A stretch of DNA of 45,390 bases from JAZDEY01 sp043808325 [NCBI: Candidatus Eiseniibacteriota bacterium]. Lineage in GTDB: Bacteria; Arandabacterota; Arandabacteria; Arandabacterales. Location of the stretch: assembly GCA_043808325.1 (NCBI GenBank), contig JAZDEY010000020.1:1-45390 (forward strand). The letters are read 5' to 3'. This document shows, one piece after another, positions 20,307 through 39,061 of this stretch. The notes under the pieces are model-generated. The model was not told the DNA's origin. It saw only the letters and a program-made list of their open reading frames with translations, and made no database searches. Position 1 is the stretch's first letter. Each line of letters starts with the position of its first letter. The translations under genes and the position numbers were made by a program.

Positions 20307-21167
20307 TTGAGACTGGCCACCGCGATCCGGTGTTTCGACATCCAGCTCGCCGCTGATGGCAAGAGCGAGCACACTCGTGGCGCCTATCTCCGAGACCTTA
20401 CGAAGTTCAGGGACTGGCTGCGTGGCGATCCCGATATCGTCAGCATCGCTCCCGGCACTCTCGCCAGGTACCTGACCCGCAAAGCCCCAGTAACCATACC
20501 CGCAATATCCGGCAATCGAACTAAGACGGCGCTGCGGGTCTTCTTTCGGTTTCTCGTCGCCGCCGGCTACATGGACACCGACCCTGCGCGGCTGATCAAG
20601 AATGGACGGACCGAGCCCAAGATCCCGGCGCACCTGACTGCCGCCGAAGCACGAAGGCTCATGTCAGCCATCCGGGTGGCGCGGAGCAATGCGGCAGATC
20701 GGGACCGCGCACTGTTTGCCTTCCTGCTTTATACCGGCATCAGACTCGGGTCAGCGATCGAACTGAGGGTTCGCGATGTCAACCTCGGCCAGCGGACAGC
20801 GCAGATCAACGGCAAGGGCGGGGCCAGACAGTCGGTCTACCTCAACTCGAGCGTCCGCAGGTTTCTCAAGTCACACATCAAGGCCTTCGGACTCACCCCC
20901 GACGACGCTCTCTTCCCCTCCCGCAGCGGCGGTCACCTGTGTGCTCGCCAAGTCCAGCTCCGATTCAAGCACTGGCTCGACAAGGCTGGCATCACCCGTC
21001 ACCTTACGGTCCATTCTACGCGGCACACCTTCGCCATGAACCTCTACCGAAGTAGTGGCAACCTCCGGCTCGTCCAGACCGCGCTCGGGCATCGGCACAT
21101 TAGCACGACCGAAATCTACGCCCGAGTTGAGGACAAGACCCTGAGGCGAGCGCTCGAGAGATTGTAG
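20307..21167 (+). CDS. Tyrosine recombinase, XerC/XerD-like
   Basis: A 286-aa protein starting at TTG 20307, with AAAGGAGG and a 5-base gap upstream. The core-binding domain is residues 1-100. The catalytic set is complete: R146 (TGIRLGSA), K170 (NGKGG), H236 and R239 (HSTRHTF), H262 (LGHRHIS) and Y271 (TTEIYARV). Length fits Xer-type enzymes. The extra alpha-helix segment of integron IntI, usually before HxxR, is absent. It lies directly before an array of short gene units separated by structured repeats, in the same direction as most of them. It may mobilise that array, but it could also belong to an unrelated element. Confidence 0.92.
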   Translation: MRLATAIRCFDIQLAADGKSEHTRGAYLRDLTKFRDWLRGDPDIVSIAPGTLARYLTRKAPVTIPAISGNRTKTALRVFFRFLVAAGYMDTDPARLIKNGRTEPKIPAHLTAAEARRLMSAIRVARSNAADRDRALFAFLLYTGIRLGSAIELRVRDVNLGQRTAQINGKGGARQSVYLNSSVRRFLKSHIKAFGLTPDDALFPSRSGGHLCARQVQLRFKHWLDKAGITRHLTVHSTRHTFAMNLYRSSGNLRLVQTALGHRHISTTEIYARVEDKTLRRALERL

Positions 21168-21213
21168 CCCAATCACCGCGAAAGCCCGTTTTCCCTACTT
21201 CGTTCAATCGGCA

Positions 21214-21354
21214 TTATGCGAAGCTGGCCAGAGTCACGACCTCGCTGAACCCTTCAAGCAGCGTATCGTCATTTTCCCCGGCGCGTTGCTTGGTGTCGAC
21301 CTTTCCCCGGGAGATCACGTGGGTCTACTCTCGAACCGGTGAGCGCAGTCTCAT
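21214..21354 (-). pseudogene. Remnant of a RAYT/Y1 transposase N-terminus
   Basis: On the minus strand from ATG 21354: MRLRSPVRE, an in-frame stop, then THVISRGKVDTKQRAGEN, ending TLASFA. The start MRLRSP...HVISRGK matches the N-terminus of REP-associated tyrosine transposases (usual form YHVISRGN). Only about 46 codons remain and the catalytic HUH and Tyr motifs are missing. A similar HVISRGK remnant lies in repeat L3 near 29480. Confidence 0.5.
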
Positions 21355-21518
21355 CTCGAAACCGTATAGCACATGTCATGACCTTCAGTCTTTGACAGAG
21401 GCGTCAGACTGTGGTATCCTAAATGCTCGGCTTATTGAGCATTGTGCGGCAGAGCAGTAACCCAAAGGCTGTCATCTGGAAACGGCATAAGCCGCGGCTG
21501 GGCACTGTTAGAGGTAGT
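21305..21518 (+). repeat. Leader repeat L1
   Basis: Starts with CCCCGGGAGATCACGTGGGT (21305-21324), identical to 29472-29491. It includes the promoter at 21392-21420, a GGCAGAG box 27 bases after the -10 (21448-21454), and a conserved core at 21461-21505 (CCCAAAGGCTG, CTGGAAACGGCATAAGCCG). The same core occurs in L2, L3 and L4. Although an ATG frame at 21423 reads through, the shared peptide it encodes (VIWKRHKP) recurs in L2, where no gene continues, so this part is non-coding. Confidence 0.75.
21392..21420 (+). promoter_or_regulatory. Promoter within L1
   Basis: TTGACA (21392-21397), 17 bases, TATCCT (21415-21420). The -35 is consensus. L3 and L4 hold the same arrangement. The gene starts about 100 bases downstream. 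Confidence 0.65.
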
Positions 21519-22586
21519 ATGATCGAAGAGAGTGCTCTGCGCTTCTTTGCAAGTGATCTGGGGGCGCCGCTCTTCGCTATCCCGCAGGCGGCAGATGATC
21601 CGAATCATCCCCACTTCCAGGCAGTCCAAAGAGCCCTCGGCTCCATCGATCAAATCAGTGTCGACGACATGAAACTCAACCCCTCGTTTGCCTTCCTACA
21701 CCGTGACGTGCCTCCCGCTGAATACGAGCGGAAAGCACGGATTTACGTCTTGATCGAGTACCTCAACCATGAGATACCGCGCCGGCGTTGCTCGGAGCTC
21801 GCCGCCCAGGACTCATGCCCGAGGCCTGCGCCGTACAATCACCCGAGCCTCATAGACCTTGAGCTCGATAGTGATCGCTTGGTCGCACTGAGTGAGTTCA
21901 ACATAGTCGGCGGGGTGCTCCTTCGAAATGAGTTCGCATCCACCGTGACTCCCCCGGTCCAATCAGTGAATGCCGCATACTGGTTGCTGCAGATTCTCAA
22001 ACGTCCGGCCCTCTATCAGTCGGCCCGTGTGCGTCTGGATCCATTCTTGTTCCGACCTGCCAAGGAGGTTGGGCATATCGGCTACCGGATGTGGATTTAC
22101 GGGGTGCCGCTCCAATGGGATCGCATAGCCGAACTAAAGGAGGAAGAACACGGGCGGTGGTTTCCGGACCCTTGGCCCCAAACCGATATCGAGTTCACCG
22201 ATTTTGTTTGGTCGCCCCGAGGTGAAGAAGTGCACTTTCTGTGCGAGGAAGTCCCCAGGCGTGACGCCGTGGAGTTTCGGGGTAGCAGGTACTTCCATGC
22301 CGTACTTACCCGTGCCAGCCGCACATTTTCCCATGTGGATGGCGCCGTCCGTCTCTACTCACAGGATGATTGGGGCGACCGCGTGCAGACCCACGTCCGC
22401 AGGGCAGGAAAGTCCGGCAGGCGCATCAAGGTCTTCCAGATCAACGCGGAGATCACTTCCCAGCTTGTCTGCGACTTATGCCCCTCCTTCTTTGTCTGGA
22501 ATATGGACGTAGCTCGCTATTTTGGCTCTGGTCCAGACAGGCCAGCGCCATGGAACACTGGCAACAGTGCCCAACGAGTGGCTTGA
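21519..22586 (+). CDS. Unrecognised 355-aa protein, first unit of the array
   Basis: The start at ATG 21519 is preceded by GAGGTAGT with good spacing; the in-frame ATG at 21423 lies inside repeat L1 and is rejected. The protein is soluble and mixed in composition, rich in Trp, Pro and His (PDPWPQTDIEFTDFVWSP), with three Cys near the end (LVCDLCPSFFVWNMD). There is no signal peptide, membrane segment or known motif. Its stop lies inside the structured repeat at 22569-22694, the arrangement seen for integron cassettes. Function unknown. Confidence 0.8.
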   Translation: MIEESALRFFASDLGAPLFAIPQAADDPNHPHFQAVQRALGSIDQISVDDMKLNPSFAFLHRDVPPAEYERKARIYVLIEYLNHEIPRRRCSELAAQDSCPRPAPYNHPSLIDLELDSDRLVALSEFNIVGGVLLRNEFASTVTPPVQSVNAAYWLLQILKRPALYQSARVRLDPFLFRPAKEVGHIGYRMWIYGVPLQWDRIAELKEEEHGRWFPDPWPQTDIEFTDFVWSPRGEEVHFLCEEVPRRDAVEFRGSRYFHAVLTRASRTFSHVDGAVRLYSQDDWGDRVQTHVRRAGKSGRRIKVFQINAEITSQLVCDLCPSFFVWNMDVARYFGSGPDRPAPWNTGNSAQRVA

Positions 22587-22694
22587 GACGGCCGGACGTT
22601 GCGGCGTCACGGCTCTTGCAGGAGCAAGCGCCGCGCTGCCTTGCTGCCGCTGACGCGCACGATTATGCTGGATCGGCATACTCTACCGTTGGCA
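22569..22694 (+). repeat. attC-like structured repeat A
   Basis: Left end GCCCAAC (22569-22575) fits the integron R-type core RYYYAAC; right end GTTGGCA (22688-22694) nearly complements it. CCAACGAGT near the left end can pair with ACTC...GTTGG at the right end. An inner hairpin CTTGC-AGGA-GCAAG sits near 22615-22628. GAGACGG and GGCGTCACGG are shared with D, E, F and H. The upstream gene ends inside it. Confidence 0.5.
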
Positions 22695-22772
22695 GGGGAC
22701 GCACAGTGTTGAGCAGTAAGGGCATGATTTGGCCTGCGAAGGCATTGGGCAATGCAGAGAGGAGGCAAGGTG

Positions 22773-23732
22773 ATGGCCGGAGATACACGTAGGCTCTTGG
22801 AGGATTTGGCGCTTGCCAAGACGGCTCTTGATACAGATGAAATCAAGGATGAACTCACACACCTTCGCCAAGCGCTTGAGGAGGAGCAGCGAAAGCAGGA
22901 ACTCGAGAGAGACGAGAAACAGCGCTCTGAGAAGGGGCAGAAGTTTTTCACCTTGGGCGAAGAGAGCTTCCGTTCCGCCAAGTGGACGGAGGCCATCGTA
23001 AACTACGAAATTGCCGCGAGGTCATTCCCAGGCACCTACTATTTTACGAGTAGTGGTATATTCAGCTCTAAGCTCGCCCTTTTCGAAATCGCCCGATGTC
23101 TGCAGCGCTTAGGCAGGTATAGTGAATCGCTAAAGGTGTTCGATGAACTTTCCGCAAGCAAGGACAATCTGGCCACCGATTGCGATTATCTCGATCTATT
23201 CATGAAACAGTTCAACCCCGAATTCGTGTTGGCCTGCGAAGGTCGCCTCGAGCAACTCGAACAGGGCTCGAGTGCTGAAGCAGACTCTCACTCCGAGCGG
23301 AAAGACCTTATGGTGAGGGTATTCGAGCTTGCTCCTGACACACATCCAGAATATGAGGAGGCCTTTCGAGAACAGAGGGAGAACGAAAAGAAGCAGGCCG
23401 AGACCCGCCGCGCATTGCTTCGAGCTAAAATGGCCGAGCGCGTCGCCCATCGCAAACCGTGGACTAGGGCTCGTGTCGCAGGCTTTCTGTTGGCTTTCGC
23501 CTGCCTCATAGGGTTTGCCTCGGTCAGTTCAGGTACGACTGATCTGAGCATCAGCATGTACAACATGTTCGGAAATGGTTTCTGGCTGCTCCTGCTCCTA
23601 GGGATGGTCGCTTGGTATTTCGTGAGGAGGCAAGGAAAGGAAATCCGCCGCATCGAGGCCGAGATCAAAACACTCTCCTCGCTGATTGCTAGCATAGATT
23701 CGGTGTTGGATCGGCAGAGAAAGCCACAGTGA
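22773..23732 (+). CDS. Coiled-coil/TPR-like membrane-anchored protein
   Basis: 319 aa from ATG 22773, with GGAGG 7 bases upstream. The N-terminal 70 residues are a charged coiled coil (LRQALEEEQRKQELERDEKQ). Residues about 60-150 look like TPR-type helices (FRSAKWTEAIVNYEIAARSF, LALFEIARCLQRLGRYSES). Two membrane segments follow near the C-terminus (RVAGFLLAFACLIGFASV and FGNGFWLLLLLGMVAWYFV), then a short helical tail. There is no signal peptide, so it should face the cytoplasm. It resembles in plan the minus-strand 333-aa protein at 27832-28833. Function unknown. Confidence 0.8.
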   Translation: MAGDTRRLLEDLALAKTALDTDEIKDELTHLRQALEEEQRKQELERDEKQRSEKGQKFFTLGEESFRSAKWTEAIVNYEIAARSFPGTYYFTSSGIFSSKLALFEIARCLQRLGRYSESLKVFDELSASKDNLATDCDYLDLFMKQFNPEFVLACEGRLEQLEQGSSAEADSHSERKDLMVRVFELAPDTHPEYEEAFREQRENEKKQAETRRALLRAKMAERVAHRKPWTRARVAGFLLAFACLIGFASVSSGTTDLSISMYNMFGNGFWLLLLLGMVAWYFVRRQGKEIRRIEAEIKTLSSLIASIDSVLDRQRKPQ

Positions 23733-24338
23733 TTGCTTGCCGCTGGGTTTCGGATGGGCTGCCCACTGATCTCTATCAGTTGGAGATGGGAGTAGAGGCT
23801 CTCTGATTCCTATGCTGCCGGTGGTAGAATATGGACCTTTGACAACCTCCCCGAGAGAGCTAGGCACGTGGATGGCACACCTGCTTACGGAGAATGGAGT
23901 GGTGGGTGGCTCGGTGTTGCGCAGAAGCAGGCTGAGGATTTGAACGAGCTTATTCGTGCTTGGACTGGCTTTTGAGCGGGAACCTTGGTTGTGAGGAAAT
24001 AGGGGTTTGTGAGAATTGTGAGGGGTATAATTCTGGCCCCACTTCCTGGTAGAGGTTGGTGGTATCGTGCCATGGAGCGATGGTCAAGAGATTCACTGGG
24101 TTGCGGAAGGACGTGACCACTATCTCTATGATGGTTGATCCTCTGGCCGGGCACATCGCGCAGGAGGAAAGAGAATTCGAAATAGCCGCCTCACAAAGGC
24201 AGTGCGAAAGCTGTCAGGCAGCAGTCGGGGCGGGTCTCAACCTGTTCGCTGGGCCTTTGTGCAGGCTGAACGTTCTGTGACAGCCCAGGCGGGCCCTCGT
24301 GTCATGATGCGGTCAAAGCCAAGAGCATGGAGGAAACG
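23733..24338. other. Gap of about 600 bases, probably with gene debris
   Basis: No convincing gene. A plus-strand frame is open from 23796 to 23975 and ends in protein-like sequence (YGEWSGGWLGVAQKQAEDLN, then ELIRAWTGF), but it lacks an ATG and a ribosome site, so it may be a gene fragment. No L-type or attC-like repeat was seen here, unlike most other gaps of the array. Confidence 0.4.
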
Positions 24339-25727
24339 ATGAGGATACTACTTTGCCTCCTACTGAGTGCAGGGGTGGTTATCACCGTGGGAGCCTGCAA
24401 CAATCAGCGAACACGGAATGAGACACGCGGTTCGTCTATAGGGCTTCAGGAAGGGGCAGGCGATCGGTGGGTTATGAGTGTCTGGCTAGACGTTTATGAT
24501 CAACCGAGTAGTGGAGGCAAGATTGTGGGAACGCTGCCGCCGGGCTCACTCGTCGTGATCAACGTAAGGTACGGCACCGATCCCATCTATGTAGGTGCTC
24601 CAGCAGGCTGGGCCTATGGGACCTCTGAAGACGGTAGAATCACAGGGTGGGTGGACACGAACCTGCTGACTGTGACTAGGCCCGAGCATTACATCCCCGT
24701 GGGCAGTCCGGATTCTGCCCACCAGAAAAGAAATGAAAGTGTGCTGTCCAGGACATCGGGGATGCTCGCTCTTATCCCAGCCGCTGTGGCCCTGGCAATT
24801 GTCTTGCTGCTTGGCATATTCTACCTATTCCTCGTGTCGGACGCGCGTGCTGCGGCCATAAGCTCAGTAGCAATAAGTCTCTTTGGCGCTCTCAACATCC
24901 TATTTGGTGTGTGCGCAGCTCTTAGCCTAGTCCCGCACTTCCATTGGGACATCATGAGGGAAATTCGGTTGCTCTATCCGGTCAATTACACCCTCATTGC
25001 CGTAGATATAGTCAGCGCTATCTGGTTACTTGTGTCGGGCATAGGGCTCCTGCGCGCTACCGCATGGTCGCGCAGAGCGACAATGGCATATGGTTGCGCC
25101 GCGATTCTCGATGTTGCGCTTTTCCTGGCTGGCGCTACGCCTTTTGGCTACCTCCTGACGTCATTCCCGACGATCTACTTAGCGACTGGCGCCGCCAAAC
25201 CATGGGGCGCGGCCGCCAGCCTAGTCTATCCGATCTTGCTTATCGTGTTCATGAAGAAACGACAGGTGCGGGTGGCATTCGAAAACAGCCGCCCCGACCA
25301 ACGCACGGGGGTACGTGGCCAAACATCTGCTTTCCTCCCCCCTCACCAGATTGCAGAAGCAAGTGCAACGCGTGTTGGTCCAACTGAAGGGTCTGGCTCA
25401 ACATGTGCTGATCTCTACTGCCCCTCCTGCGGCAACAGCGTCAAGAGAGGCGCCGTCATCTGCATCCATTGCGGTGTGCCGAATAGAGCTGCCTACTTCC
25501 GGGGGTACCCAGTCGAGAAAAAGAAGGACACAGCAATGCTCCTGGGCGTCTTCCTCGGGTTCTGGACATGGCTCTACACCTATAAGAGAGATGCGTGGAA
25601 GTTCTGGCTATGTCTTGGACTCGGTCTGCCTACGTTTGGTGTCTCCGTTGTCGTTGGACATATCTGGGCCATAATCAATCAAGCCGTCAGACCGAATTCG
25701 TTCTTCAGGGATTATCCCAATGGATAA
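24339..25727 (+). CDS. Lipoprotein-type membrane protein with SH3-like, zinc-ribbon and TM2-like parts
   Basis: 462 aa from ATG 24339, with GGAGG 4-5 bases upstream. A lipoprotein-type signal (LLLSAGVVITVGAC) comes first. Residues about 45-110 resemble a bacterial SH3 domain (WLDVYDQPSSGGKIVGTL, GRITGWVDTNLL). Five or six membrane segments follow (about 140-290). A zinc ribbon has CPSCG and CIHCG in YCPSCGNSVKRGAVICIHCG. The end is TM2-domain-like (KKKDTAMLLGVFLGFWTWLY, then GHIWAIINQAVRP). It shares the zinc-ribbon-plus-membrane plan with the 171- and 179-aa proteins of the array. It may be an envelope stress or surface-sensing protein; that is inference. Confidence 0.8.
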   Translation: MRILLCLLLSAGVVITVGACNNQRTRNETRGSSIGLQEGAGDRWVMSVWLDVYDQPSSGGKIVGTLPPGSLVVINVRYGTDPIYVGAPAGWAYGTSEDGRITGWVDTNLLTVTRPEHYIPVGSPDSAHQKRNESVLSRTSGMLALIPAAVALAIVLLLGIFYLFLVSDARAAAISSVAISLFGALNILFGVCAALSLVPHFHWDIMREIRLLYPVNYTLIAVDIVSAIWLLVSGIGLLRATAWSRRATMAYGCAAILDVALFLAGATPFGYLLTSFPTIYLATGAAKPWGAAASLVYPILLIVFMKKRQVRVAFENSRPDQRTGVRGQTSAFLPPHQIAEASATRVGPTEGSGSTCADLYCPSCGNSVKRGAVICIHCGVPNRAAYFRGYPVEKKKDTAMLLGVFLGFWTWLYTYKRDAWKFWLCLGLGLPTFGVSVVVGHIWAIINQAVRPNSFFRDYPNG

Positions 25728-25918
25728 TATGGGTGTTGGGTGATTTGCAACAGCACAGGATCGCTCGGTACACAGCTGAAGAGCGGCCCAAGGGCTGTTA
25801 TCTGGAAACGGCATAAGCCGCAGATGGCGCGAAGGAGATGCTGGACCGCAGTCGAGCGGGCGGTCGTTCGCAGGCATGAGCTTTGCGCGTTCACCTTGAA
25901 TGACGCGGGAGGATCACG
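25722..25918 (+). repeat. Leader repeat L2
   Basis: Begins at the preceding stop codon and holds the conserved core at 25787-25832 (CCCAAGGGCTG, CTGGAAACGGCATAAGCCG). It stays similar to L3 as far as the next gene start (CGTTCACCTTGAAT against CGTTCACGTTGAAT). No consensus -35 box was found in this copy. Confidence 0.7.
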
Positions 25919-26434
25919 ATGTTCACGCTATATCTTATCGCTTTCCCGGTTCTGTGGGTCGTAGTTGGAATTGTCGTAGCCTATCTCCTCTACGACGCAC
26001 TTTCCCGGGTTCCCGAGCGATACCGCGCTGCACCACCGTATTTCGCATGGCTCACGCTCATCCCTGTTGCAGGAGTGGCCTTCTACTGGATCTTGCTGCC
26101 CTTCAAGGTACCGGAGTCGTTTCAGCGCTATTTCTCTGACCACCCCAATGAGACCGCCAAATCCCAAGACTGCGGGAAGGCACTGGGGCTTGCGTGTGTC
26201 ATTCTTGGGGTGTTATGTCTTATACCCATTCTTGACATCATTGCTTCTATTCCAGCGTTGATTGTCTTGATTCTCTACCTGCGCCGCGTCGCCGCGATGG
26301 CGAAACTCATCCCCGTGCAGGCACCCCACCAACCGGTCCAGCCCACATCACTTAAGAAATGTCCCTATTGCGCTGAGTTCGTCCAGCCGGAGGCAGTCAA
26401 GTGCAAGCACTGCGGATCACCGCTACCGAAATGA
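25919..26434 (+). CDS. Three-pass membrane protein with C-terminal zinc ribbon (paralogue 1)
   Basis: A 171-aa protein with GGGAGG before the ATG. It opens with a membrane segment (YLIAFPVLWVVVGIVVAYLL), then two more (FAWLTLIPVAGVAFYWILL and LACVILGVLCLIPILDIIAS), then YLRRVAAMAKLIP. The cytoplasmic tail holds a zinc ribbon, CPYCAEFVQPEAVKCKHCG. It is nearly identical to the protein at 29810-30349. The similarity at DNA level includes the leader and the repeat after the gene, so the whole unit was copied. Function unknown. Confidence 0.85.
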   Translation: MFTLYLIAFPVLWVVVGIVVAYLLYDALSRVPERYRAAPPYFAWLTLIPVAGVAFYWILLPFKVPESFQRYFSDHPNETAKSQDCGKALGLACVILGVLCLIPILDIIASIPALIVLILYLRRVAAMAKLIPVQAPHQPVQPTSLKKCPYCAEFVQPEAVKCKHCGSPLPK

Positions 26435-26449
26435 CCCTGGGGATCTTCC

Positions 26450-26533
26450 ATCTAACAAGGATAGACAAGCGTCTTGAGCGGACGGCTGCTATGGGGTCAC
26501 GGTTCTTGCAGAGCAACTGCCGCGCCGTTGGGT
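26450..26533 (+). repeat. attC-like structured repeat D
   Basis: ATCTAAC (26450-26456) fits RYYYAAC and GTTGGGT (26527-26533) fits GTTRRRY, giving an 84-bp site, within the usual attC size. The inner part has CTTGAGCGG, GGTCACGG and the apical pair TTGC-AGA-GCAA. It is the best attC match in the window. Confidence 0.5.
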
Positions 26534-26597
26534 AACGAAGACTCGGCATTCAGATTGGGTAGTGCCGGTGTTCAAGTTGCAGTGGAGGTAGATGCCA

Positions 26598-27578
26598 ATG
26601 ATACGCAACTGCGCAGCCGCCGCGACCGTGCTCACACTAGTTCTACTCATATTCGACATTGCCACCGCCCTAAGTGGAGCGGAAGCTCCGGAAGGAGCGA
26701 GGGTAGACGTCAATCTGCTATCCGGCAAGACCTTTCATGGGACGTTGTTGGAGGTTACACCTGATTCGCTGGTCATCGACCGGGGGGGAGGGGGCTCACC
26801 CCTTTATCATCCTATAGCTCGGTTTTCTCGTGCGGAGATATCCGCCATACGGTTGTCGGAAGACCTCACATTCTTGCCTCTACCGTCGGACACCACTCTG
26901 CAGGACATGTTAAGAAGCATCATAGCTGCGAAATCGGTTCGGCCATCGGTTCGACCACAGATCGATCTCAATCTGGAATCTGGCAATATTCTCCATGGGG
27001 CTTTGCTGGATGTTACGCCTGATTCATTGGTCATTGACCAAGGGGGAATGAGATTCCCCTTCTATCATCCGATAGCCAGCTTCTCTCGTTCAGAGATATC
27101 TGGTATTCGGCTGCGGGGGGAATCCGCGTTTTCACCCATGCCCCCAGACACAACTCTGGAGGACACTCTCAGGGGCATGATGAGTGCGAAGTCAACCCGG
27201 GACTCGCTCGAGACCACGACAGATATTAGATCAACTGGGCCACGATACATACGTGTCTACAAATATGATAAGCTCGCATTTGTCGGACTTACGATCGCCG
27301 GAGGTGTCTTTGCCGGTGACCGTCTTAGCAGAGCATCGGCGAAGGATGATCTGGCTGACTTCATGGATACTCAAAAGCAGCATTCCCTCGCCAGCAGCCT
27401 CAGGGGCGATGCGAAAGATGCTAGGTCTCAAGCCTATTTCGGCGTAGCGGTCGGTCTTGGAGCTCTTGTTGCTGCTTGCTGGCCCTCTCACGAAGATATT
27501 CTGGTTCCCTCCGTTTCTGCTGAGAACTCAGGAGGGGTGAGAGTTGCTTTTTCGATACCTCATTGGTGGCTACCCTGA
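26598..27578 (+). CDS. Exported protein with two tandem Sm-like repeats
   Basis: GGAGG is 9 bases before ATG 26598; ATG 26592 is also possible. The N-terminus is a signal peptide or anchor (AAAATVLTLVLLIFDIATAL). Two copies of an about 85-aa unit follow: VDVNLLSGKTFHGTLLEVTP with LVIDRGGG and SRAEISAIRL, then IDLNLESGNILHGALLDVTP with LVIDQGGM and SRSEISGIRL. The pattern of short beta strands (LxSGxxxxGxLLxVTPDSLVI) resembles Sm-like or PilZ-size beta barrels. A charged linker (YIRVYKYDKLAFVGLTIAGG) and a hydrophobic stretch follow, then a short tail. Each repeat also carries a helical TTLxDxLR segment. The duplication is clear; the function is unknown. Confidence 0.8.
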   Translation: MIRNCAAAATVLTLVLLIFDIATALSGAEAPEGARVDVNLLSGKTFHGTLLEVTPDSLVIDRGGGGSPLYHPIARFSRAEISAIRLSEDLTFLPLPSDTTLQDMLRSIIAAKSVRPSVRPQIDLNLESGNILHGALLDVTPDSLVIDQGGMRFPFYHPIASFSRSEISGIRLRGESAFSPMPPDTTLEDTLRGMMSAKSTRDSLETTTDIRSTGPRYIRVYKYDKLAFVGLTIAGGVFAGDRLSRASAKDDLADFMDTQKQHSLASSLRGDAKDARSQAYFGVAVGLGALVAACWPSHEDILVPSVSAENSGGVRVAFSIPHWWLP

Positions 27579-27635: not shown

Positions 27636-27715
27636 GCCCAACCGTTAGATTGAGACGGTTGACTGCCGCGACGTCGGCTCTCGCCGCCGCCAGGCGTAGT
27701 AGGTGGTCTTATCTT
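27636..27715 (+). repeat. attC-like structured repeat F
   Basis: GCCCAAC (27636-27642) is followed by TTGAGACGG and CGACGTCGGCTCTCGCCGC, aligning with repeats A and E. The right core is not clear, so this copy is degenerate. The right end is approximate. Confidence 0.4.
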
Positions 27716-28849: not shown

Positions 28850-29212
28850 TCATTCCTTTTCTTCCAGCCTAACCTTCCTTATCTGCCTTCTAACCATGAG
28901 AGATTGGAGCCTCTCGATGAATTCCGGTGGCCAGAGCTCCGGCTGGCTATTGACCATATCTGATCTCATTGCTGAAACGTCTGGGTACTTGCCGGAGGAG
29001 ATAAGAAGCTCCCGCAAGGCACTCCACTTCTCGGGATCGTCACCCTTGGTCGGAGCACAGACGTGGTCCTCTATGGTCACCACCAGCCGATGGTTAGGGC
29101 CGTCAATAACACGCATGTTCTCCCGTTCGGCGAATTCGATAGCGGCTTCCTCGATCTTCGCTTGCTGTTTGCCGCCAGCGAATCCGGACTCGCACGGCGT
29201 CCATTCTAAGAC
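28850..29212 (-). pseudogene. C-terminal fragment of a RecB/Cas4-like PD-(D/E)XK nuclease
   Basis: The frame has VLEWTPCESGFAGGKQQAKI, then EFAERENMRVIDGPNHRLVV and WSALRELLISSGKYPDVSAM, and ends MVRRQIRKVRLEEKE. This order resembles the tail of PDDEXK_1/RecB-like nucleases, after the catalytic core. The core itself is missing and no plausible start lies in frame nearby (the frame only becomes protein-like from about 29212). It is therefore a fragment. It adjoins leader L3, which suggests loss of the front part by recombination. Confidence 0.6.
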
Positions 29213-29223
29213 ACGCGTTCTCT

Positions 29224-29376: not shown

Positions 29377-29471
29377 CTGCTCCTGTACGAAGTTCAATCG
29401 GTCGCTTGGCTCTCCTCGGATGACTCGCTCCTCTTGCGCCGCCCTGAAACACGCATCTGCTGGTGGCCTTC

Positions 29472-30349: not shown

Positions 30350-30374
30350 CCCTGGGGATCTTCCATCTGACAAG

Positions 30375-30460
30375 ACTCAACAAGCGTCTTGAGACGGGCG
30401 GCTACTGCGGCGTCACGGTTCTTGCGGTGGCAAGCGCCGCGCCGCCTTGCCCCACCACCC
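30375..30460 (+). repeat. attC-like structured repeat E
   Basis: ACTCAAC (30375-30381) fits RYYYAAC. It is followed by AAGCGTCTTGAGACGG, TGCGGCGTCACGG, the hairpin CTTGC-GGTG-GCAAG and CGCCGC, aligning well with repeat A. No clear GTTRRRY core follows. The right end is approximate. Confidence 0.45.
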
Positions 30461-30521
30461 AGCCACGCCGTCATCTGCCATATGAGTACTCAATCAGAGA
30501 CTTCTTCATGGGAGGTCTTCC

Positions 30522-32193: not shown

Positions 32194-32506
32194 TCAGGCC
32201 TCAGATGAACACTCTATTGCGAAGGTCTTTGGACTCTCGAAGCCGTCCTCCAGTATCCTCCGAAGCGCCTTCACCTGCTTGGCCGGGCACCAGCTGCGGC
32301 AGTTGGACAGCCATCGTTCATCCTCCCCCGGTCGCGGGTCCGCCTGTTTCCCCGCCTTGCCCCTCACTCGGATTGCTAGCATCACGCCATTCTACGATAA
32401 TTCTGGTCTGCTCGCCTGCCCCCCGTTCCTCTCTCAAGAACTCTTCCAGCCTGATAAGCTTGTCCAAGTCCGCGACGGTGACTTTGACCTTGCCCGCGGC
32501 TTGTAA
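32194..32506 (-). pseudogene. Truncated gene pair cut by leader L4
   Basis: The minus strand reads VKVTVADLDKLIRLEEFLRE, then TRIIVEWRDASNPSEGQGG, and stops. An overlapping frame continues with ERWLSNCRSWCPAKQVKALR and FESPKTFAIECSSEA, with its stop at 32194. Both look like real coding sequence, perhaps phage-type small proteins, but the first has no start: its upstream part is replaced by L4 from about 32496. The rest of 32067-32193 shows nothing clear. Confidence 0.5.
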
Positions 32507-32635
32507 GCGCTTTGACAGGCGCTTGAAAGTGTGATAATGGTGGGATAGCGGCTGTTGAGCTTTATCCGGTAGAAGAGCGGCCCAAACGCCCTTATCTGGA
32601 AACGATTTGAGCCGTAGTTAGCAAGGTATTAGGGA
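32496..32635 (+). repeat. Leader repeat L4 with promoter
   Basis: TTGACA (32512-32517), 17 bases, TAATGG (32535-32540), identical boxes to L3. The box GGTAGAA lies 27 bases after the -10, in place of GGCAGAG. The core at 32581-32624 ends in GTTAGCA, which complements the GCTAAC after the downstream gene. The L3-like sequence starts near GCGGCTTGTAAGCG, exactly where the minus-strand fragment is broken off. Confidence 0.7.
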
Positions 32636-32641: not shown

Positions 32642-33154
32642 ATGACAGGAAGGCCGCGTCCGGAGATACCAAGGTCCATTCAGGTCGAGGTTTTCTTTCG
32701 GGACCGCTGGCTCTGTCATCTCTGCCATCGCCCCACCGTGTTTGATCTCGCTTTCAAGTTCCTGTCAGAGATGGTCGATTCGGAGCTGCCGGGCGTACTG
32801 GTCGCGATGTACGACCTCCATCGGCGTCGCGACAAGGCCCCGTTGCTCGACGAGATTGGGGCGTGCCTCGACCACGTCGAGTCGTACGTTGGCGGCGGAG
32901 CACACGACATCAGCAACTTCGCCACCGCGTGCGCGCGGTGCAACGCGCGCAAGAGTGACCACACCAAGGACCAGTACTTGGAGATTAGCCGCCCATGGAA
33001 GGTGAGAGGACAGCACGGCGAGCCAGAGCATTGGGACGGCTTGGCCTCTCTATTCGTGATCCTAGCCAGACACTCAAACCGGCCGCTGACAGGAGCTGAG
33101 AAGGGCTGGCTGCGTGCATTCGAGGAGCACTATGCTCAAAGGGGTGTTCGCTAA
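32642..33154 (+). CDS. HNH endonuclease
   Basis: A 170-aa protein with GGGAGGGTGA before the ATG. It has the HNH signature: CHLC (C25, C28), the catalytic region LDHVESYVGGGAHDISNF with H78, and C97-C100-N101 with H107 in CARCNARKSDH. The zinc pair and the DHV...N...H order are typical of HNH nucleases with restriction-like or mobile-element roles. No extra domain is seen. It stands alone with its own leader and its stop touches repeat H, so it looks like a cassette passenger, perhaps for defence. Confidence 0.88.
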   Translation: MTGRPRPEIPRSIQVEVFFRDRWLCHLCHRPTVFDLAFKFLSEMVDSELPGVLVAMYDLHRRRDKAPLLDEIGACLDHVESYVGGGAHDISNFATACARCNARKSDHTKDQYLEISRPWKVRGQHGEPEHWDGLASLFVILARHSNRPLTGAEKGWLRAFEEHYAQRGVR

Positions 33155-33205
33155 CAGGGGCGTCGAGACGGACTGCGCTTCGCGCTGCCGCTGATGCCGA
33201 CGAAA
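33149..33205 (+). repeat. attC-like structured repeat H
   Basis: GCTAAC (33150-33155) overlaps the stop of the HNH gene. Then GGGGCGTCGAGACGG and the palindrome-rich TGCGCTTCGCGCTGCCGC follow, the latter able to form a GCGC-hairpin. This copy is shorter than A. The next gene starts inside it and no right core was found. The right end is approximate. Confidence 0.45.
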
Positions 33206-34144
33206 TCGCTTAGCACGATACTTGACAGGGATTTCGCGCGAGCTGGCGCGAGAGATGTGATCGACTTGATCTGCCCTCTCCTGCGTGAGCTAGTCAACCA
33301 CGCGACGCACGTATTTCAGCGCTCCCAGGCTGCCCCGGCGGAGCCCCCTGGCGTCGATGAGGACATTGCACCGCTGTGCCTATTTCGGACAGTGACGGAG
33401 TGCACTGACGCCGTCGAGGAGCTCATAGCGGAATCGTGCGGCTTCGGAACGCTCCCAGTGCTGCGAACCTCCTTTGAGGCGGTCGTGTCGCTTGAGTATT
33501 TGAATCATGGGGACTGTGCCAAGCGCGGACTCTGTTGGTTCTATGCGTATATTCGAGATCGCCGACGATCCTATCGTCTGCTTAGAAGCGCATCGCCGGA
33601 GGGACAGTCCTTTGACGAGGCGTGGAAACGTCAGTTCGGAGTGGCCTTTCATGAGCCGCCAGACGTGGACAAAGCCATCGCCAATCTCGATCGCCTGCTC
33701 TCGAAACCGCATCTAGCTCCGATAGATGCCGAGTTTCACCGGTTAAGGAGCGCACGGAGAAGTACGCCGAAATGGTACGCCCTGTTCAGAGGACCCACGA
33801 CCCTCAGAGATTTGGCAATATCGGTCAATCGCGAGGCTGACTATGAATTCCTGTATCGGTACTGGTCCAGTGTGGCACATGCGCATGACGCGTCCAGCCT
33901 CCTCACCGCATTGAGAGACGGTAGTCCAGGGTTTTGGAGCATGCGGTACCCTGGCCGCCTCCAGCAGGTCGCTCTCTGGGCCGCAGAATTCCAACTAAGT
34001 GCGACTCGGTCCATGCTCAAACGCTACCGCCCTACTGAAGAGATCACGCCCTGGTATCTTGCTGAGATAAAGCCGAAGATGGACAAACTCAGGAACGCCA
34101 AGTTCACAATGAATATTGTAGAGGAAGGGGAGTTTCCTGGCTGA
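33194..34144 (+). CDS. DUF5677 family protein
   Basis: A 316-aa protein with no clear ribosome site; the start is chosen as the first ATG and lies inside repeat H. The sequence LPVLRTSFEAVVSLEYLN, the YAYIRDRRRSYRLLRSASPE stretch and YRYWSSVAHAHDASSL are typical of DUF5677, helical proteins of about 250-320 aa. Their function is unknown; they are often found in accessory and defence regions. The protein is soluble with no signal peptide. The family call rests on pattern and length. Confidence 0.75.
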   Translation: MPTKSLSTILDRDFARAGARDVIDLICPLLRELVNHATHVFQRSQAAPAEPPGVDEDIAPLCLFRTVTECTDAVEELIAESCGFGTLPVLRTSFEAVVSLEYLNHGDCAKRGLCWFYAYIRDRRRSYRLLRSASPEGQSFDEAWKRQFGVAFHEPPDVDKAIANLDRLLSKPHLAPIDAEFHRLRSARRSTPKWYALFRGPTTLRDLAISVNREADYEFLYRYWSSVAHAHDASSLLTALRDGSPGFWSMRYPGRLQQVALWAAEFQLSATRSMLKRYRPTEEITPWYLAEIKPKMDKLRNAKFTMNIVEEGEFPG

Positions 34145-34240
34145 CCACCGGCGTGAGGCGCACGGATGCTGCGGCGTCAGGCTAGGATTGAGCGCCAAAT
34201 AAAGCTAGTCATGCCGGATCGGCATAGGCCGTGGTTAACC
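34139..34240 (+). repeat. attC-like structured repeat I
   Basis: GGCTGAC overlaps the stop of the DUF5677 gene; GAC replaces the usual AAC. TGCGGCGTCAGG follows, then a right part (CATGCCGGATCGGCATA, CCGTGGTTAACC) that aligns with the core of L1-L3. This copy links the two repeat families, because it joins an A-type left half to an L-type right half. Confidence 0.45.
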
Positions 34241-34249
34241 TGCTAAGGA

Positions 34250-37200
34250 ATGAGCCGCTTGAACATTGACTGGAATGCGATCAGGCCGCTGAACGGGGGA
34301 CGTGATAAGGGGTTTGAAGAGCTGTGTGCCCAATTGGCACGTGCCGAGAAGCCCGCTGGTTCGCGCTTTGAGCGGAAAGGGACTCCTGACGCTGGAGTCG
34401 AGTGCTACACCATCTTGCCCGACACCTCAGAGTGGGGATGGCAATCCAAGTACTTTGATGGGCTGGGGGACCCGCAGTGGTCTCAGATTGATGAGTCTGT
34501 CGACAAGGCCCTCGAGAAACACCCTCGGCTCGTGCGGTACTTCGTCTGCGTCCCATTCGATCTCCCGGACGGTCGCATCAAGGGGCGAAAGTCTGCGAAG
34601 GAGCGGTGGGACGATCACGTCAAGAAGTGGACCAAGTGGGCCTCCAAACGGAAGATGACGGTTGAGTTCGTCTACTGGGGCAGTCACGAGATGCTCGAGC
34701 GGTTGGCGCAGCCGCATAATGTTGGGCGTGTCCGTTTCTGGTTCGACGTACGGGGCTTCGACGGAGCCTGGTTCTCCGCGCGACTGGAGGAAGCACTGGG
34801 GACCGCAGGACCGCGCTACACCCCCCAGATTCACGTTGACCTGCCGATCGCCGGCGAGTTCGATGCATTCGGTCGGACGGAACGGTTCTTTGACTGCGTC
34901 AAGGCGTGTGCTCGGAAGGTCCGTGATAAGCTTCGGACTTTCGAGTACTCCGACCAGAATGTAGCCGCCGAGGCGAGCCTTGACGCCGCTGCAACCTCAC
35001 TGATCACAAAGGTCGAGGCAGTCCTGGCAGAACTTGCGGATGTCCAGTTTCAGCCCATTGGGCCCCTTCCGTTCTCGCAGATCGCTGGACAGGTCGCCGT
35101 CGCGGAGGAGGCTGCCGAGGAAGTCGAACGGTTCCTCTCCGAGCGCGAACGAGCGCATGATGCAGAGGCGTCTGCGAAGACCGGAACGACCTCGAGAGCG
35201 TCCTACCCGAGCAACCCTTTCAGGGAGCGGCGACTCCGTCTGTACAGCCTGTCAGCTGAGCTCAGAGAGGCGCGCGAAGCGCTGACGCACGCTGACCGCA
35301 CCGCGAGCGGTGCGCTGATGCTCCTTCGCGGCGATGCGGGCACAGGCAAGACCCACCTTCTATGCGACGTGGCTCGCCAACGTGTTGCCGCGAATCGGCC
35401 GACGGTACTTCTCCTCGGCCAGCGCTTCGTAAGCAACGATGCGCCGTGGACGCAGGCGCTTCAACATCTCGACTTGGCCGGCCTTTCCGCTGAAGAGTTC
35501 GTCGGCGCTCTCGAGTCAGCGGCGCAGGCTGCGGGCTCTCGCGCTCTTGTCCTGATCGACGCGATCAACGAGGGCTCGGGCCGGGTCATCTGGCCGAACC
35601 ACTTGGCTGCCTTTCTCGCCCACCTCGAGCGATCTCTATGGGTTGGTGTGGTGCTCTCGGTTCGTTCGTCCTATGAAGAAATCGTCGTCCCCGAGGCGGT
35701 GCGAGAACGTGCCGCTGTGGTGACGCACAACGGGTTCATGGATCACGAATACGATGCCACTCGAACATTCTTCGTTCACTACGGCCTGGAGCTGCCCTCG
35801 ACTCCACTTCTCGCGCCGGAGTTTCGCAACCCGTTCTTTCTCAAGACCCTGTGTGAGGGCCTCCGCACGAAGGGGGAGCGACGGCTGCCGCGCGGCTTCC
35901 ACGGCATCACCGCCGTGTTCGATCTGTACCTATCTGCGATCAACCAGCGCTTGGCGTCAGCCCTTGGCTTCGATCCCAGAACTCCGCTCGTCCGGCAGGC
36001 CCTGGAGGCTGTATCCAAGGTACTCGTCGATTCCGGAAAGCGGTGGCTGACGTTGGCGAAGGCAGGGGAGATCATAAACTCCCAGCTTCCTGACCGTGAG
36101 TTCGAGCAGTCTCTTTATCGCGGCTTGGTCGTTGAAGGTGTCTTGGTCGAGGATGCGGTACGTCGCCAAGACGCAGACCGAGATGAGATCGTCTTCGTTG
36201 CCTACGACCGCTTCGTCGATCATCTGGCTGCCAGGACGTTGCTCGATAGACATCTCGACGCCGGTAACCCAGCGTCTGCCTTCGCTGCAGGAGGTGCCCT
36301 GGCGTTCCTGGCCGACAAGAAGCAGTACGTGCCACCTGGACTCCTCGAAGCCATGTGCATCCAGATTCCTGAGCGTACCGGTCAGGAGATAATCGCTCTC
36401 GCCCCCGCGATCTCGGAGCGCTGGGAAATCGGTGATGCCTTTCGGCAGAGCCTGGTGTGGCGCGCGCTCAACGCCTTTTCGGATGGCACATGTGAGGCGC
36501 TGAACAAGCTCAGTCGAAATGACCACGACTTACGCGACACGTTGGACGTGCTGCTGACTGTGGCCACGTTTCCAGGCCACCCGCTCAACGCGACCTTCCT
36601 CGACCGGCGGTTGCGCAAGGACGCCATGCCTGAACGCGACGCCTGGTGGAGCACCTACCTTCACGCAGCGTGCGGTGGCCGTGGCGCCGTCGATAGGCTC
36701 GTGGACTGGGCATCCTCAGTGATACCGGATACCACCATCGACGACGAAACGGTAGACCTTTGCGCGATTACGCTTGCCTGGATGCTCACAACATCGAATC
36801 GATTCCTCCGCGACCGGGCCACCAAGGCTCTCGTGAGCCTGCTGACTGGCCGAATGCTTGCGGTCGGACGGCTCGTCGAGCGGTTCACCGATGTCGACGA
36901 CCCCTACGTGGTGGAACGCATTTACGCCGTCGCGTACGGAACTTCTACGCGATGCCACGATCCCCATGAAGTCGGTGCCCTAGCGGAACGAGTGTACGCC
37001 CGCATGTTCGCTGCCGGCGCTCCTCCGCCACATATCTTGCTCCGAGATTACGCGCGCGGAGTTGTCGAGCGTGCTCTGTACCTCGGATCAAAGGTTCAGG
37101 TCGACGCAAGTCATATTCGACCGCCGTACAAGAGCCAGTGGCCCACGATTCCGACAGAGGAGGACATCAAACCGTTCCTCCCGGATTGGTCGCGGGGCTC

Positions 37201-38935
37201 CCATGACAGCGGGGACCTTGAGTGGTCTCGCAACTGTATCGGGAGCTCTGTGCTGGACGGTGACTTCGCACACTATGTAATCGGGTCGAGTTCGAGCAGC
37301 TGGCTATCACTGGGGCTCGAAGACCCGGCTTGGAAACCGCCTGAGCGACCCGAGGATCAACTACGCGCTCTTGCCTCCGAATTCTCGGACGAAGAGAGAA
37401 ACGCCTGGAAAGCATTCAACGCAGCAGAGGCTGCACTCCAGGCAGCCTCATACTCGTTTCTCGCCGGTTGGTTCGCTCAACGCGGAATGGGTGCGAATGG
37501 CGATGCCGAACTCTCGGACGTTGATGCACTGAAGCAGTGGCTTGGGAAATCCCACTCTCAAGAGATTGCGGCCTTGGAGGCGAAGATAGGGCAGGCGCAC
37601 GATGTGCTCTACGCCGCACTCACGAAGCAGCATGCAAGGAGGCTGGAGGAAATCCTTACGGCGAAGGAGGCCTATCACGACACACGGCGGCCTCCGCGCC
37701 TCGAGCTTCGCCAGATCCAGCGGTACATCCTTCGACGTGTCTTCGAGCTCGGATGGACCACCGAGCGCTTCGGGCACTTCGACCGCTTCTCGGTTGGCTA
37801 CCATGATCGCGAAGCGTCGAAGGCCGAGCGGATCGGGAAAAAGTACCAGTGGATCGCTTGGCACGAAATCATGGCGCTTGTGGCCGATCATTTCCAGTAC
37901 CGCGAGGAGCTCCGCGAAGAGGGTGGGGACCAAGCCTACGACGGCCCATGGCAGGCCGACTTCCGCGATATTGATCCCTCGTGCACAATCCGGTCCTTGC
38001 GGGGGGGGACCTCATGGGAAGGTCACTCTCCTTCATGGTGGGGCGCAGCGCCGTATGGCAACTGGGGCTCTCCCGGCGATCCGAGAGGGTGGGTGGTTCG
38101 CTGCGACGATCTTCCTGATCTCGCGGATCTGCTAATCGTCACGAACCCTGAGGACACGTCGCGCTGGATCAGTGCACAGGGCTATCTCATCTGGCGGCAG
38201 CAACCGCCGGCGGATAAGGAGTCGACCGACGTCGAGCTGCGCGAGCTGTGGCTGCTGTGCACCGGCTATCTGATTCGGACGGAAGACGCCGAGCCATTCG
38301 TAAAGTGGGCTGAAGGCATCGATTTCTGGGGACGCTGGATGCCGGACCCGGCACAGGTCTGCCGGATGTTTCTCGGTGAGCACGGTTGGGCACCGGCGTC
38401 TCGATACTTCCAACAGCAGTACTTCGGCGATGCCGGAGAGACGCAGTCTGGCCACGGATGCCCGACGAGCATGCGCACAGTCGCGTTCAAGTACCTTCGC
38501 GAGGCGAGTGGCGTCGACCGCTCGGTGGACGAGAGCTACACCCTTCGTCTCCCCGCAGCCGAACTCGTGGCCGGAATGGCGCTTCGCTGGGTTGGGAACG
38601 GTGCGGACTTCGTGAACACTGAGGGGCGGCTCGCTGCGTTTGACCCAACCGTCCACGCGGCTGGCCCAAGCGTGCTTCTTCTTCGGGAAGAACTGCTGCA
38701 GGAGTTTCTTGCACGAGAGAAACTGACCGTCTGCTGGACTGTGTTGGGAGAGAAGCGCGTTCTCGCGCCCGGGTTCAGTCCGGGCCATCGCTATCCGGCG
38801 CTCCGGATGTCAGGAGCATATGTGCTCGCGGACAAAGGGTTGGTCGGCTTCCTAAAGTGCACACTCGATGATCCGGACACAAAGGAGACCTCCTCCCCTC
38901 CAAGAGTCCTTGCATTCATCCGGAGCCCTGTGTGA
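34250..38935 (+). CDS. STAND NTPase with N-terminal Mrr/Cap4-like nuclease (Avs-like defence protein)
   Basis: 1561 aa; ATG 34250 follows AAGGA with almost no gap, so the TTG at 34259 is a rival start. Residues 1-190 look like a PD-(D/E)XK nuclease of the Mrr/Cap4 type: FEELCAQLARAEKP, GTPDAGVECYTI (D47, E51) and EWGWQSKYF (Q65, K67). A P-loop follows: Walker A GDAGTGKTHLL (about 362-372) and Walker B LVLIDAINEG (about 432-441). A long helical C-terminus (about 600-1561) fits a repeat sensor, as in STAND proteins. The plan of nuclease, STAND ATPase and sensor matches Avs antiviral proteins, which detect phage proteins and then cut DNA. It is a single-gene unit flanked by repeats I and J. Assignment to a named Avs type is not possible from sequence reading alone. 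Confidence 0.8.
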   Translation: MSRLNIDWNAIRPLNGGRDKGFEELCAQLARAEKPAGSRFERKGTPDAGVECYTILPDTSEWGWQSKYFDGLGDPQWSQIDESVDKALEKHPRLVRYFVCVPFDLPDGRIKGRKSAKERWDDHVKKWTKWASKRKMTVEFVYWGSHEMLERLAQPHNVGRVRFWFDVRGFDGAWFSARLEEALGTAGPRYTPQIHVDLPIAGEFDAFGRTERFFDCVKACARKVRDKLRTFEYSDQNVAAEASLDAAATSLITKVEAVLAELADVQFQPIGPLPFSQIAGQVAVAEEAAEEVERFLSERERAHDAEASAKTGTTSRASYPSNPFRERRLRLYSLSAELREAREALTHADRTASGALMLLRGDAGTGKTHLLCDVARQRVAANRPTVLLLGQRFVSNDAPWTQALQHLDLAGLSAEEFVGALESAAQAAGSRALVLIDAINEGSGRVIWPNHLAAFLAHLERSLWVGVVLSVRSSYEEIVVPEAVRERAAVVTHNGFMDHEYDATRTFFVHYGLELPSTPLLAPEFRNPFFLKTLCEGLRTKGERRLPRGFHGITAVFDLYLSAINQRLASALGFDPRTPLVRQALEAVSKVLVDSGKRWLTLAKAGEIINSQLPDREFEQSLYRGLVVEGVLVEDAVRRQDADRDEIVFVAYDRFVDHLAARTLLDRHLDAGNPASAFAAGGALAFLADKKQYVPPGLLEAMCIQIPERTGQEIIALAPAISERWEIGDAFRQSLVWRALNAFSDGTCEALNKLSRNDHDLRDTLDVLLTVATFPGHPLNATFLDRRLRKDAMPERDAWWSTYLHAACGGRGAVDRLVDWASSVIPDTTIDDETVDLCAITLAWMLTTSNRFLRDRATKALVSLLTGRMLAVGRLVERFTDVDDPYVVERIYAVAYGTSTRCHDPHEVGALAERVYARMFAAGAPPPHILLRDYARGVVERALYLGSKVQVDASHIRPPYKSQWPTIPTEEDIKPFLPDWSRGSHDSGDLEWSRNCIGSSVLDGDFAHYVIGSSSSSWLSLGLEDPAWKPPERPEDQLRALASEFSDEERNAWKAFNAAEAALQAASYSFLAGWFAQRGMGANGDAELSDVDALKQWLGKSHSQEIAALEAKIGQAHDVLYAALTKQHARRLEEILTAKEAYHDTRRPPRLELRQIQRYILRRVFELGWTTERFGHFDRFSVGYHDREASKAERIGKKYQWIAWHEIMALVADHFQYREELREEGGDQAYDGPWQADFRDIDPSCTIRSLRGGTSWEGHSPSWWGAAPYGNWGSPGDPRGWVVRCDDLPDLADLLIVTNPEDTSRWISAQGYLIWRQQPPADKESTDVELRELWLLCTGYLIRTEDAEPFVKWAEGIDFWGRWMPDPAQVCRMFLGEHGWAPASRYFQQQYFGDAGETQSGHGCPTSMRTVAFKYLREASGVDRSVDESYTLRLPAAELVAGMALRWVGNGADFVNTEGRLAAFDPTVHAAGPSVLLLREELLQEFLAREKLTVCWTVLGEKRVLAPGFSPGHRYPALRMSGAYVLADKGLVGFLKCTLDDPDTKETSSPPRVLAFIRSPV

Positions 38936-39004
38936 GGCGCCGACTGCGGTGGACGCTATGTCTGCTTGGAGGGAGCGTGGAAACGCATCGGTAAACCCGG
39001 AGCA

Positions 39005-39061
39005 GCCTAACAGCCTGTTGCAGCAGACGGCGCTGCGCGCTGGTTGAAGCCGTAACGTATG
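39005..39061 (+). repeat. attC-like structured repeat J, end of the array
   Basis: GCCTAAC (39005-39011) fits RYYYAAC exactly. It is followed by AGCCTGTTGCAGCAGACGG, CGCTGCGCGC and GTTGAAGCCG, which can form a hairpin. It follows the 1561-aa gene and is the last such repeat before the chromosome-like region. The right end is approximate. Confidence 0.45.

What the first reader, a model, noticed from the sequence alone, without database searches (positions are those of the whole stretch)
20307..39061. Integron-like array of single-gene units with degenerate attC-like repeats
After the tyrosine recombinase, most genes are short, same-strand and separated by structured repeats that begin near or inside the stop codon (A, D, E, F, H, I, J). 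Several begin with RYYYAAC-type cores (GCCCAAC, ATCTAAC, ACTCAAC, GCCTAAC), and D also ends in GTTGGGT. They share GAGACGG, GCGGCGTCACGG and an apical CTTGC...GCAAG hairpin. The recombinase lacks the IntI-specific insertion, so if it acts here it would be a non-canonical cassette system. The cargo includes probable defence genes (HNH, Avs-like, RmuC) and many orphans.
Basis: partly seen in the sequence, partly recalled or inferred. Interest (0 to 1): 0.8.

Follow-up and report, generated by a model that had tools for sequence, protein, structure and literature searches.

The report
Degenerate integron-like gene cassette array
A stretch of an unidentified bacterial genome carries unrelated single genes, most followed by one half of the recombination site that integrons use to shuffle genes; it looks like a decayed or unusual integron array, and the enzyme gene beside it is not an integron integrase.

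Summary
The repeats are real and attC-like. A profile of the attC left arm (R''-spacer-L''), built from 27 Pseudomonadota attCs only, matches just after the stop codon of 7 of 10 plus-strand array genes (region P<0.03) and of 0 of 17 other ORFs in the window; 0 of 1000 column-shuffled profiles do as well. An eighth site is placed by eye and by similarity. They are not canonical attCs: a covariance model reaching 37 bits in control loci gives at most 8.7 bits here, with one site at 7.8 bits, E=9.4. At none of 8 sites are the R' box or R''/R' pairing above background. The adjacent recombinase is Xer-like, lacks the IntI insertion and has the composition of the upstream defence operon, not of most cargo. 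Best reading: a degenerate integron cassette array without its integrase, like a CALIN remnant. A cassette system run by the Xer-like enzyme is not excluded but has no direct support. No relative carrying the array was found, so shuffling of gene order could not be tested.

The parts
20307..21167 (+). Xer-like tyrosine recombinase, 286 aa, TTG start after AAAGGAGG; no IntI insertion; probably not the array's integrase
   Evidence: composition
21380..21507 (+). promoter/leader module before the first array gene (TTGACA-17-TATCCT plus GTCATCTGGAAACGGCATAAG leader)
   Evidence: (D2/D3)
21519..22586 (+). array gene 1, orphan (start chosen by eye, in frame with the longer ORF 21423-22586)
   Evidence: no family
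22569..22694 (+). site A: attC-like left arm, shared hairpin, L'-like GCTGCCGCTGACGCGCACGA; right border uncertain
   Evidence: left-arm score 11.3, region P 0.002
22752..23732 (+). array gene 2, weak TPR match below cut-off; no site found after it
24327..25727 (+). array gene 3, lipoprotein-like by eye, weak zinc-ribbon and SH3 matches below cut-off; no site found after it
25775..25828 (+). leader copy 2 (GTTATCTGGAAACGGCATAAG), without the TTGACA part
25919..26434 (+). array gene 4, zinc-ribbon orphan; duplicate of 29810
26450..26533 (+). site E: left arm, R'' ATCTAAC, ends in R'-like GTTGGGT; homology with the duplicate unit fades near here
   Evidence: score 9.3, region P 0.005; 7.8 bits E=9.4
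26592..27578 (+). array gene 5, orphan
27636..27714 (+). site D: left arm GCCCAACCGTTAGATTGAGACGG; right border uncertain
   Evidence: score 3.5, region P 0.027; fold z -1.93
27832..28833 (-). minus-strand orphan ORF
28850..29485 (-). minus-strand ORF, no Pfam family
29458..29725 (+). second copy of the promoter/leader module with its upstream 55-nt repeat
   Evidence: (D2, D3, D7)
29810..30349 (+). array gene 6, duplicate of gene 4 (gene body 95.8% identical)
30375..30487 (+). site F: left arm ACTCAACAAGCGTCTTGAGACGG, shared hairpin; right border uncertain
   Evidence: score 8.0, region P 0.011; folds
30522..32066 (+). array gene 7, RmuC family
   Evidence: 252.7 bits
32111..32176 (+). site G: left arm AGATAACAAGGCGGTCCCGGGACGG; right border uncertain
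   Evidence: score 5.7, region P 0.016
32500..32620 (+). third copy of the promoter/leader module
32642..33154 (+). array gene 8, HNH endonuclease
33149..33214 (+). site H: left arm CGCTAACAGGGGCGTCGAGACGG, 66 nt to GCTTAGC, L'-like part shared with A
   Evidence: score 8.1, region P 0.010
33194..34144 (+). array gene 9, DUF5677
34139..34242 (+). site I, placed by eye: weak left arm; right end ATGCCGGATCGGCATA shared with A and resembling the leaders
   Evidence: left-arm score -4.6, P 0.31, not significant
34250..38935 (+). array gene 10, Avs2 antiphage protein
   Evidence: (1381.8 bits, cut-off 1000)
39005..39062 (+). site J: best left arm, GCCTAACAGCCTGTTGCAGCAGACGG; right border uncertain
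   Evidence: score 15.5, region P 0.001

Best explanation
This is an integron-type gene-cassette array that has lost canonical attC sites and has no integron integrase in view: a degenerate, CALIN-like remnant. Each unit was once a one-gene cassette ended by an attC site. The left arm (R''-spacer-L'') is still recognisable after most genes. The R' box and R''/R' pairing have gone or changed, so the sites are probably poor substrates, or none, for a known IntI. Several genes may now be expressed from their own copies of one promoter/leader. Shown: left-arm similarity, its position, sharing among some sites, absence of canonical structure, and that the only tyrosine recombinase among the 27 window proteins scanned with Pfam is not an IntI. 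Inferred: descent from a working integron, loss of the integrase, and that the Xer-like recombinase belongs to the neighbouring defence operon rather than to the array.
For: An attC left-arm profile trained without any window sequence picks 7 of 10 plus-strand array 3' flanks at region P<0.03 and 0 of 17 other ORF flanks (Fisher 4e-8 versus 0.59). The sites are related to each other, so Fisher overstates independence; the column-shuffle control does not need it: 0 of 1000 shuffled profiles reach the observed statistic (largest 41.6, observed 73.9). Of the 7 best plus-strand scores in the window, 6 are these sites. Some sites share sequence across unrelated genes. The units are single-gene, 10 of 12 on one strand. 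The two duplicate units share leader, gene body and site (80%, 96%, 81%) and fall to 61% in gapped alignment after GCCGCGCCG of site E, close to the G|TT step of its GTTGGGT. [quoted passage not shown]
Against: No significant covariance-model hit. R' scores of -2.7 to 5.3 against 6.1 to 15.1 in training (nearest are D, P 0.06, and E, P 0.09), and ungapped Watson-Crick pairing not above shuffles at any of 8 sites. Decay of both halves alike would not predict left arms kept and right arms lost at nearly all sites. Two array genes have no site, and site I has no significant left arm. No single left arm is significant against the whole window. Site-specific cassette movement is not shown: the duplicate pair can be explained by ordinary duplication and gene conversion. 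The flank window (-20 to +100 from the stop) was chosen after the sites were seen.
Confidence: 0.58

Rival explanations
1. A working integron of a divergent lineage: the sites are functional attCs of a type outside the Pseudomonadota-trained model, and the true IntI lies elsewhere in the genome and acts in trans.
For: A and H share an L'-like right arm GCTGCCGCTGAYGCSSACGA. H's predicted fold pairs its left and right arms and its ends, leaving unpaired bases, though its energy is no better than shuffles (z 0.05). All 7 bases of E's R'' can pair with GTTGGGT if G-T is allowed. attC models are taxon-specific (PMC8352920, passages), and cassettes in CALINs can be used in trans (PMC9668308, passages).
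Against: R' boxes and R''/R' pairing are not above background at any of 8 sites. Only 3 of the 8 sites (A, D, F) fold with z near -2.
Confidence: 0.15
2. A cassette system run by the adjacent Xer-like recombinase on attC-like sites, perhaps as double-stranded DNA.
For: Uninterrupted recombinase gene with the usual catalytic motifs by eye (recalled), upstream of the first promoter/leader and in the same direction. GAGACGG is identical in A, D, F and H. A 20-bp perfect direct repeat CCCCGGGAGATCACGTGGGT lies downstream of the recombinase and 8.2 kb into the array.
Against: No IntI insertion; Xer proteins lack the I2 element that reads folded attC (PMC7790495, passages). Recombinase GC 0.62 and GC3 0.75 match the upstream defence operon (0.61-0.64 and 0.72-0.76), not most cargo (GC 0.53-0.58 in 9 of 11 array genes measured). 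No left-arm site after the recombinase gene. By eye no 7-base core is identical at all 8 sites.
Confidence: 0.1
3. An unrelated family of intergenic repeats (REP-like, or 3' regulatory structures) that resembles an attC left arm.
For: Half the site, and the pairing that defines attC, is missing. The hairpin of A and F is shared as sequence. The promoter/leader repeats show that other repeat families exist here.
Against: Order-sensitive profile match. No terminator-like site within any of the 8 site spans. No Rfam family reaches its gathering score in the window. None of the 17 other ORF flanks reaches P<0.03; the lowest is 0.037.
Confidence: 0.12

Closest known systems
CALIN (cluster of attC sites lacking an integron integrase)
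   Same: Series of mostly same-strand single genes, most followed by an attC-like left arm, no IntI found in the window
   Different: Sites are not scored as attC; right half (R') not recognisable
Complete chromosomal integron
   Same: Recombinase gene, promoter-like stretch, then an array of unrelated genes with attC-like left arms
   Different: Recombinase is Xer-like without the IntI insertion and points the same way as the array; attC sites not canonical. Reverse orientation of IntI alone is known in Spirochaetota (PMC9668308, passages)
XerC/XerD-type tyrosine recombinases
   Same: Residues 18-281 of 286 align with XerD (1a0p, 103.6 bits); best NCBIfam scores are XerD and XerC (about 180 bits)
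   Different: Below the curated cut-offs of about 330 bits; at most 35% identity in the 20 of 299 Pseudomonadota genomes that match at E<=1e-30
Avs2 (AVAST type 2)
   Same: Gene 34250-38935 passes the NCBIfam cut-off (1381.8 versus 1000 bits) and matches PADLOC Avs2 at 1663 bits
   Different: Nothing notable except its place in the array

Membership tests
attC site | left arm R'' (RYYYAAC) - spacer - L'' in attC order | tested here: met
   7 of 10 array 3' flanks at P<0.03; 0 of 1000 shuffled profiles as good; site I not met
attC site | R' box (GTTRRRY) 45-135 nt downstream of the start of R'' | tested here: not met
   best scores -2.7 to 5.3 versus 6.1 to 15.1 in training, region P 0.06 to 0.78 over 8 sites; E has GTTGGGT (P 0.09), D the best score (P 0.06)
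attC site | R''/R' and L''/L' pairing into a hairpin | tested here: not met
   covariance model R2: best window hit 8.7 bits, site E 7.8 bits E=9.4, control loci up to 37.1 bits; R''/R' pairing P 0.095 to 0.99. L''/L' alone was not tested as such; folds
Integron (complete) | IntI with the additional domain near patch III | tested here: not met
   recombinase 89 bits on TIGR02249 versus cut-off 265; insertion absent in alignment with 13 IntIs; no other Phage_integrase match in 27 window proteins scanned
Integron (complete) | attI with promoter Pc beside intI | tested here: inconclusive
   promoter-like 10 of 12 at 21392-21420, but 8 such sites found against 6.7 expected; the same module recurs at 29.6 and 32.5 kb
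CALIN | at least 2 attC sites found by model, no IntI | tested here: not met
   no significant model hit in the window; the limit of two sites is from PMC9024848 (passages)
Integron / CALIN | cassette order differs between relatives | not testable with these tools
   no relative found

The most novel reading that the evidence does not exclude
A cassette array moved by a Xer-type recombinase without the I2 element, on attC-like half sites handled as double-stranded DNA: a living or recent form of the double-strand ancestor from which integrons are thought to have arisen.
Probability: 0.07. Interest if true: 0.85.

Novelty: new variant of a known kind. Interest (0 to 1): 0.42.

Why it matters
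If it is a decayed array, it shows that attC-type cassettes carrying defence genes (Avs2, HNH) can persist after the sites stop meeting attC models, so model-based surveys may undercount such arrays; a left-arm-only profile with a positional test finds this one. If the Xer-like enzyme moves the units, it would bear directly on how integrons arose from Xer-type recombination.

Tried and rejected
Promoter repeats as attC left arms: the D2 repeat (CTTTGACAG...) looks attC-like by eye, but scores -13 to -46 on the left-arm profile at the eight offsets tried, so I treat it as a promoter/leader. A right-end box GTYATSY seen by eye in leaders, A, D, F and I is partly supported by A-I and I-leader similarity, but canonical R' scoring does not support it, so it is not counted as R'. 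Relatives: the leader pattern in genome contigs gave one chance match inside a coding sequence of a Rhodospirillaceae MAG. In viral contigs a site pattern, the leader pattern and the 20-bp repeat gave 0, 0 and 0; a hairpin pattern gave 2 matches inside one and the same ORF of two viral contigs, judged chance; the recombinase gave one locus at 32% identity; the zinc-ribbon orphan gave 124 relatives, 80 kept, all matching only within residues 118-179 of 179. The recombinase matched at least 5000 plasmid records, all below 60% identity and about 32% at best in the 15 rows listed, and 20 of 299 Pseudomonadota genomes at up to 35%. DNA of one unit (29440-30530) found nothing in plasmids or phages. 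The first covariance model R1 could not take long loops and was replaced by R2. Two strict pairing scans find nothing at the 8 sites. The structure of the orphan 21519 came out at mean pLDDT 33 and was not used.

Training set: 301 candidate attC-like hairpins in control loci, filtered to 70, 60 and 32 non-redundant. Five of 32 were dropped by hand (two long chance hairpins, one other chance candidate, one reversed, one nested), leaving 27. The pairing test is ungapped and Watson-Crick only.
Full report
What was checked. The finding describes structured repeats after most genes between 20.3 and 39.1 kb. I confirmed them by repeat search, sequence reading and pairwise alignment against shuffles. 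Eight sites (my letters) begin at 22569 A, 26450 E, 27636 D, 30375 F, 32111 G, 33149 H, 34139 I and 39005 J. Seven pass a profile test; site I is placed by eye and by its right end.

Are they attC-like beyond chance? I collected attC sites from integron-bearing Pseudomonadota genomes. IntI family TIGR02249 was found in 72 of 398 genomes and an attC pattern in 12 of 398; arrays were fetched. The final set is 27 non-redundant attCs. A 25-column profile of their left arms was scored in the 3' flank (-20 to +100) of 27 ORFs of the window. Seven of 10 plus-strand array genes reach region P<0.03: 21519, 25919, 26592, 29810, RmuC, HNH and Avs2. None of the 17 other ORFs does; the lowest is 0.037. These 17 include the recombinase and the two minus-strand ORFs of the array. 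Combined P is 4e-8 against 0.59. With the profile's columns shuffled, 0 of 1000 runs reach the observed statistic (largest 41.6, observed 73.9), and the reversed and complemented profiles do not either. No single site is significant against the whole window: the best score is 15.5 and the 95% point of the shuffle maxima is 15.8. The evidence is joint and positional. The flank size was chosen after the sites were known; the column-shuffle control uses the same flanks.

Are they attC sites? By the usual definition, no. A covariance model with room for long loops (R2) gives 26 hits at E<=1, up to 37.1 bits, in three control loci, one of which (L037) contributed one training site. In the window it gives four hits at E<=10, best 8.7 bits, and only one is at a site: E, 7.8 bits, E=9.4. 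At none of the 8 sites is the best R' box above background (lowest P 0.06 at D and 0.09 at E), nor the ungapped pairing of R'' with downstream sequence above shuffles (lowest P 0.095, at I). Folding of 14 stretches, mostly bottom strand, gave z near -2 for A, D and F (F core -2.67), -2.13 for one leader module, and between -0.93 and +0.27 for the rest.

Other structure in the array. Four copies of a leader, STYAYCTGGAAACG, stand before genes 21519, 25919, 29810 and 32642, three of them with a shared promoter-like stretch. Genes 25919 and 29810 are duplicates: leader 80%, gene body 96%, site 81% identical, then 61% in gapped alignment after GCCGCGCCG of site E. The rise of identity inside the gene body suggests later gene conversion, so the pair does not prove cassette movement. 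Sites A and H share an L'-like right arm; A and I share ATGCYGGATCGGCATA, and I resembles the leader there. Sites D, G and J share no right part with another site at P<0.02.

The recombinase. It is a 286-aa Xer-like tyrosine recombinase: about 180 bits on XerD and XerC models (cut-offs about 330), 89 bits on the integron integrase model (cut-off 265), nearest solved structure by sequence XerD. In alignment with 13 IntIs the IntI-specific stretch is missing. Published work says Xer proteins lack the I2 element that lets IntI use folded attC (PMC7790495, passages seen). Its GC and GC3 match the upstream operon, not most of the array cargo; HNH and Avs2 are also GC-rich. I therefore think it more likely belongs with the defence operon at 7.7-20.0 kb (DruE-like, DpdE, DrmMI or type IIG matches).

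Interpretation. The most economical reading is a degenerate integron cassette array without its integrase. [quoted passage not shown] What does not fit simple decay is that left arms survive while right arms do not. Either the right halves changed in this lineage, or the site now has another role. Integrons with taxon-specific attCs are known (PMC8352920, passages), so a divergent working integron is the main rival. A system run by the Xer-like enzyme is the boldest reading left open; [quoted passage not shown]

Literature. Searches and 87 of the open library listed no paper that by title or opening of abstract describes attC half-site arrays beside a Xer-like recombinase. The lists were capped (25 of 371; 12 of 119; 12 of 25; 12 of 34). 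Apart from the passages cited I saw listings only, and subscription journals are mostly absent from that library.

Limits. No genome is held for the window, no close relative was found, and the host is unknown, so gene-order comparison, phylum-specific attC models and the search for an IntI elsewhere could not be done.

Noticed in passing
1-1143, minus strand (cut by the window edge): Large serine recombinase: Resolvase 115.6 bits, Recombinase 73.6 bits, zinc beta ribbon 45.4 bits, all over their Pfam cut-offs.
   Followed up: partly
7723-20029: Long defence operon: DruE-like helicase (373 bits), DpdE (825 bits), DrmMI / type IIG-like methyltransferase (216 bits); on the minus strand before it a weak RmrA-like HTH-peptidase (63 bits).
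   Followed up: partly
21305-21324 and 29472-29491: 20-bp perfect direct repeat CCCCGGGAGATCACGTGGGT inside a larger, less similar duplication upstream of two promoter/leader modules.
   Followed up: partly
39475-39509 and 41176-41210: 35-nt promoter-like repeat (94%) upstream of two genes outside the array; by eye it shares TGGTAT.CT and GCGGCAGAG with the array's first promoter module, so this promoter type may be general in the host.
   Followed up: no
42413-42447 and 43630-43664: 35-nt repeat (86%) at or near the ends of two ORFs downstream of the array.
   Followed up: no
32163-32534, minus strand: Between site G and the third promoter module the minus strand is open first in one frame and then in another, like the remains of a broken minus-strand gene; not identified.
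   Followed up: partly
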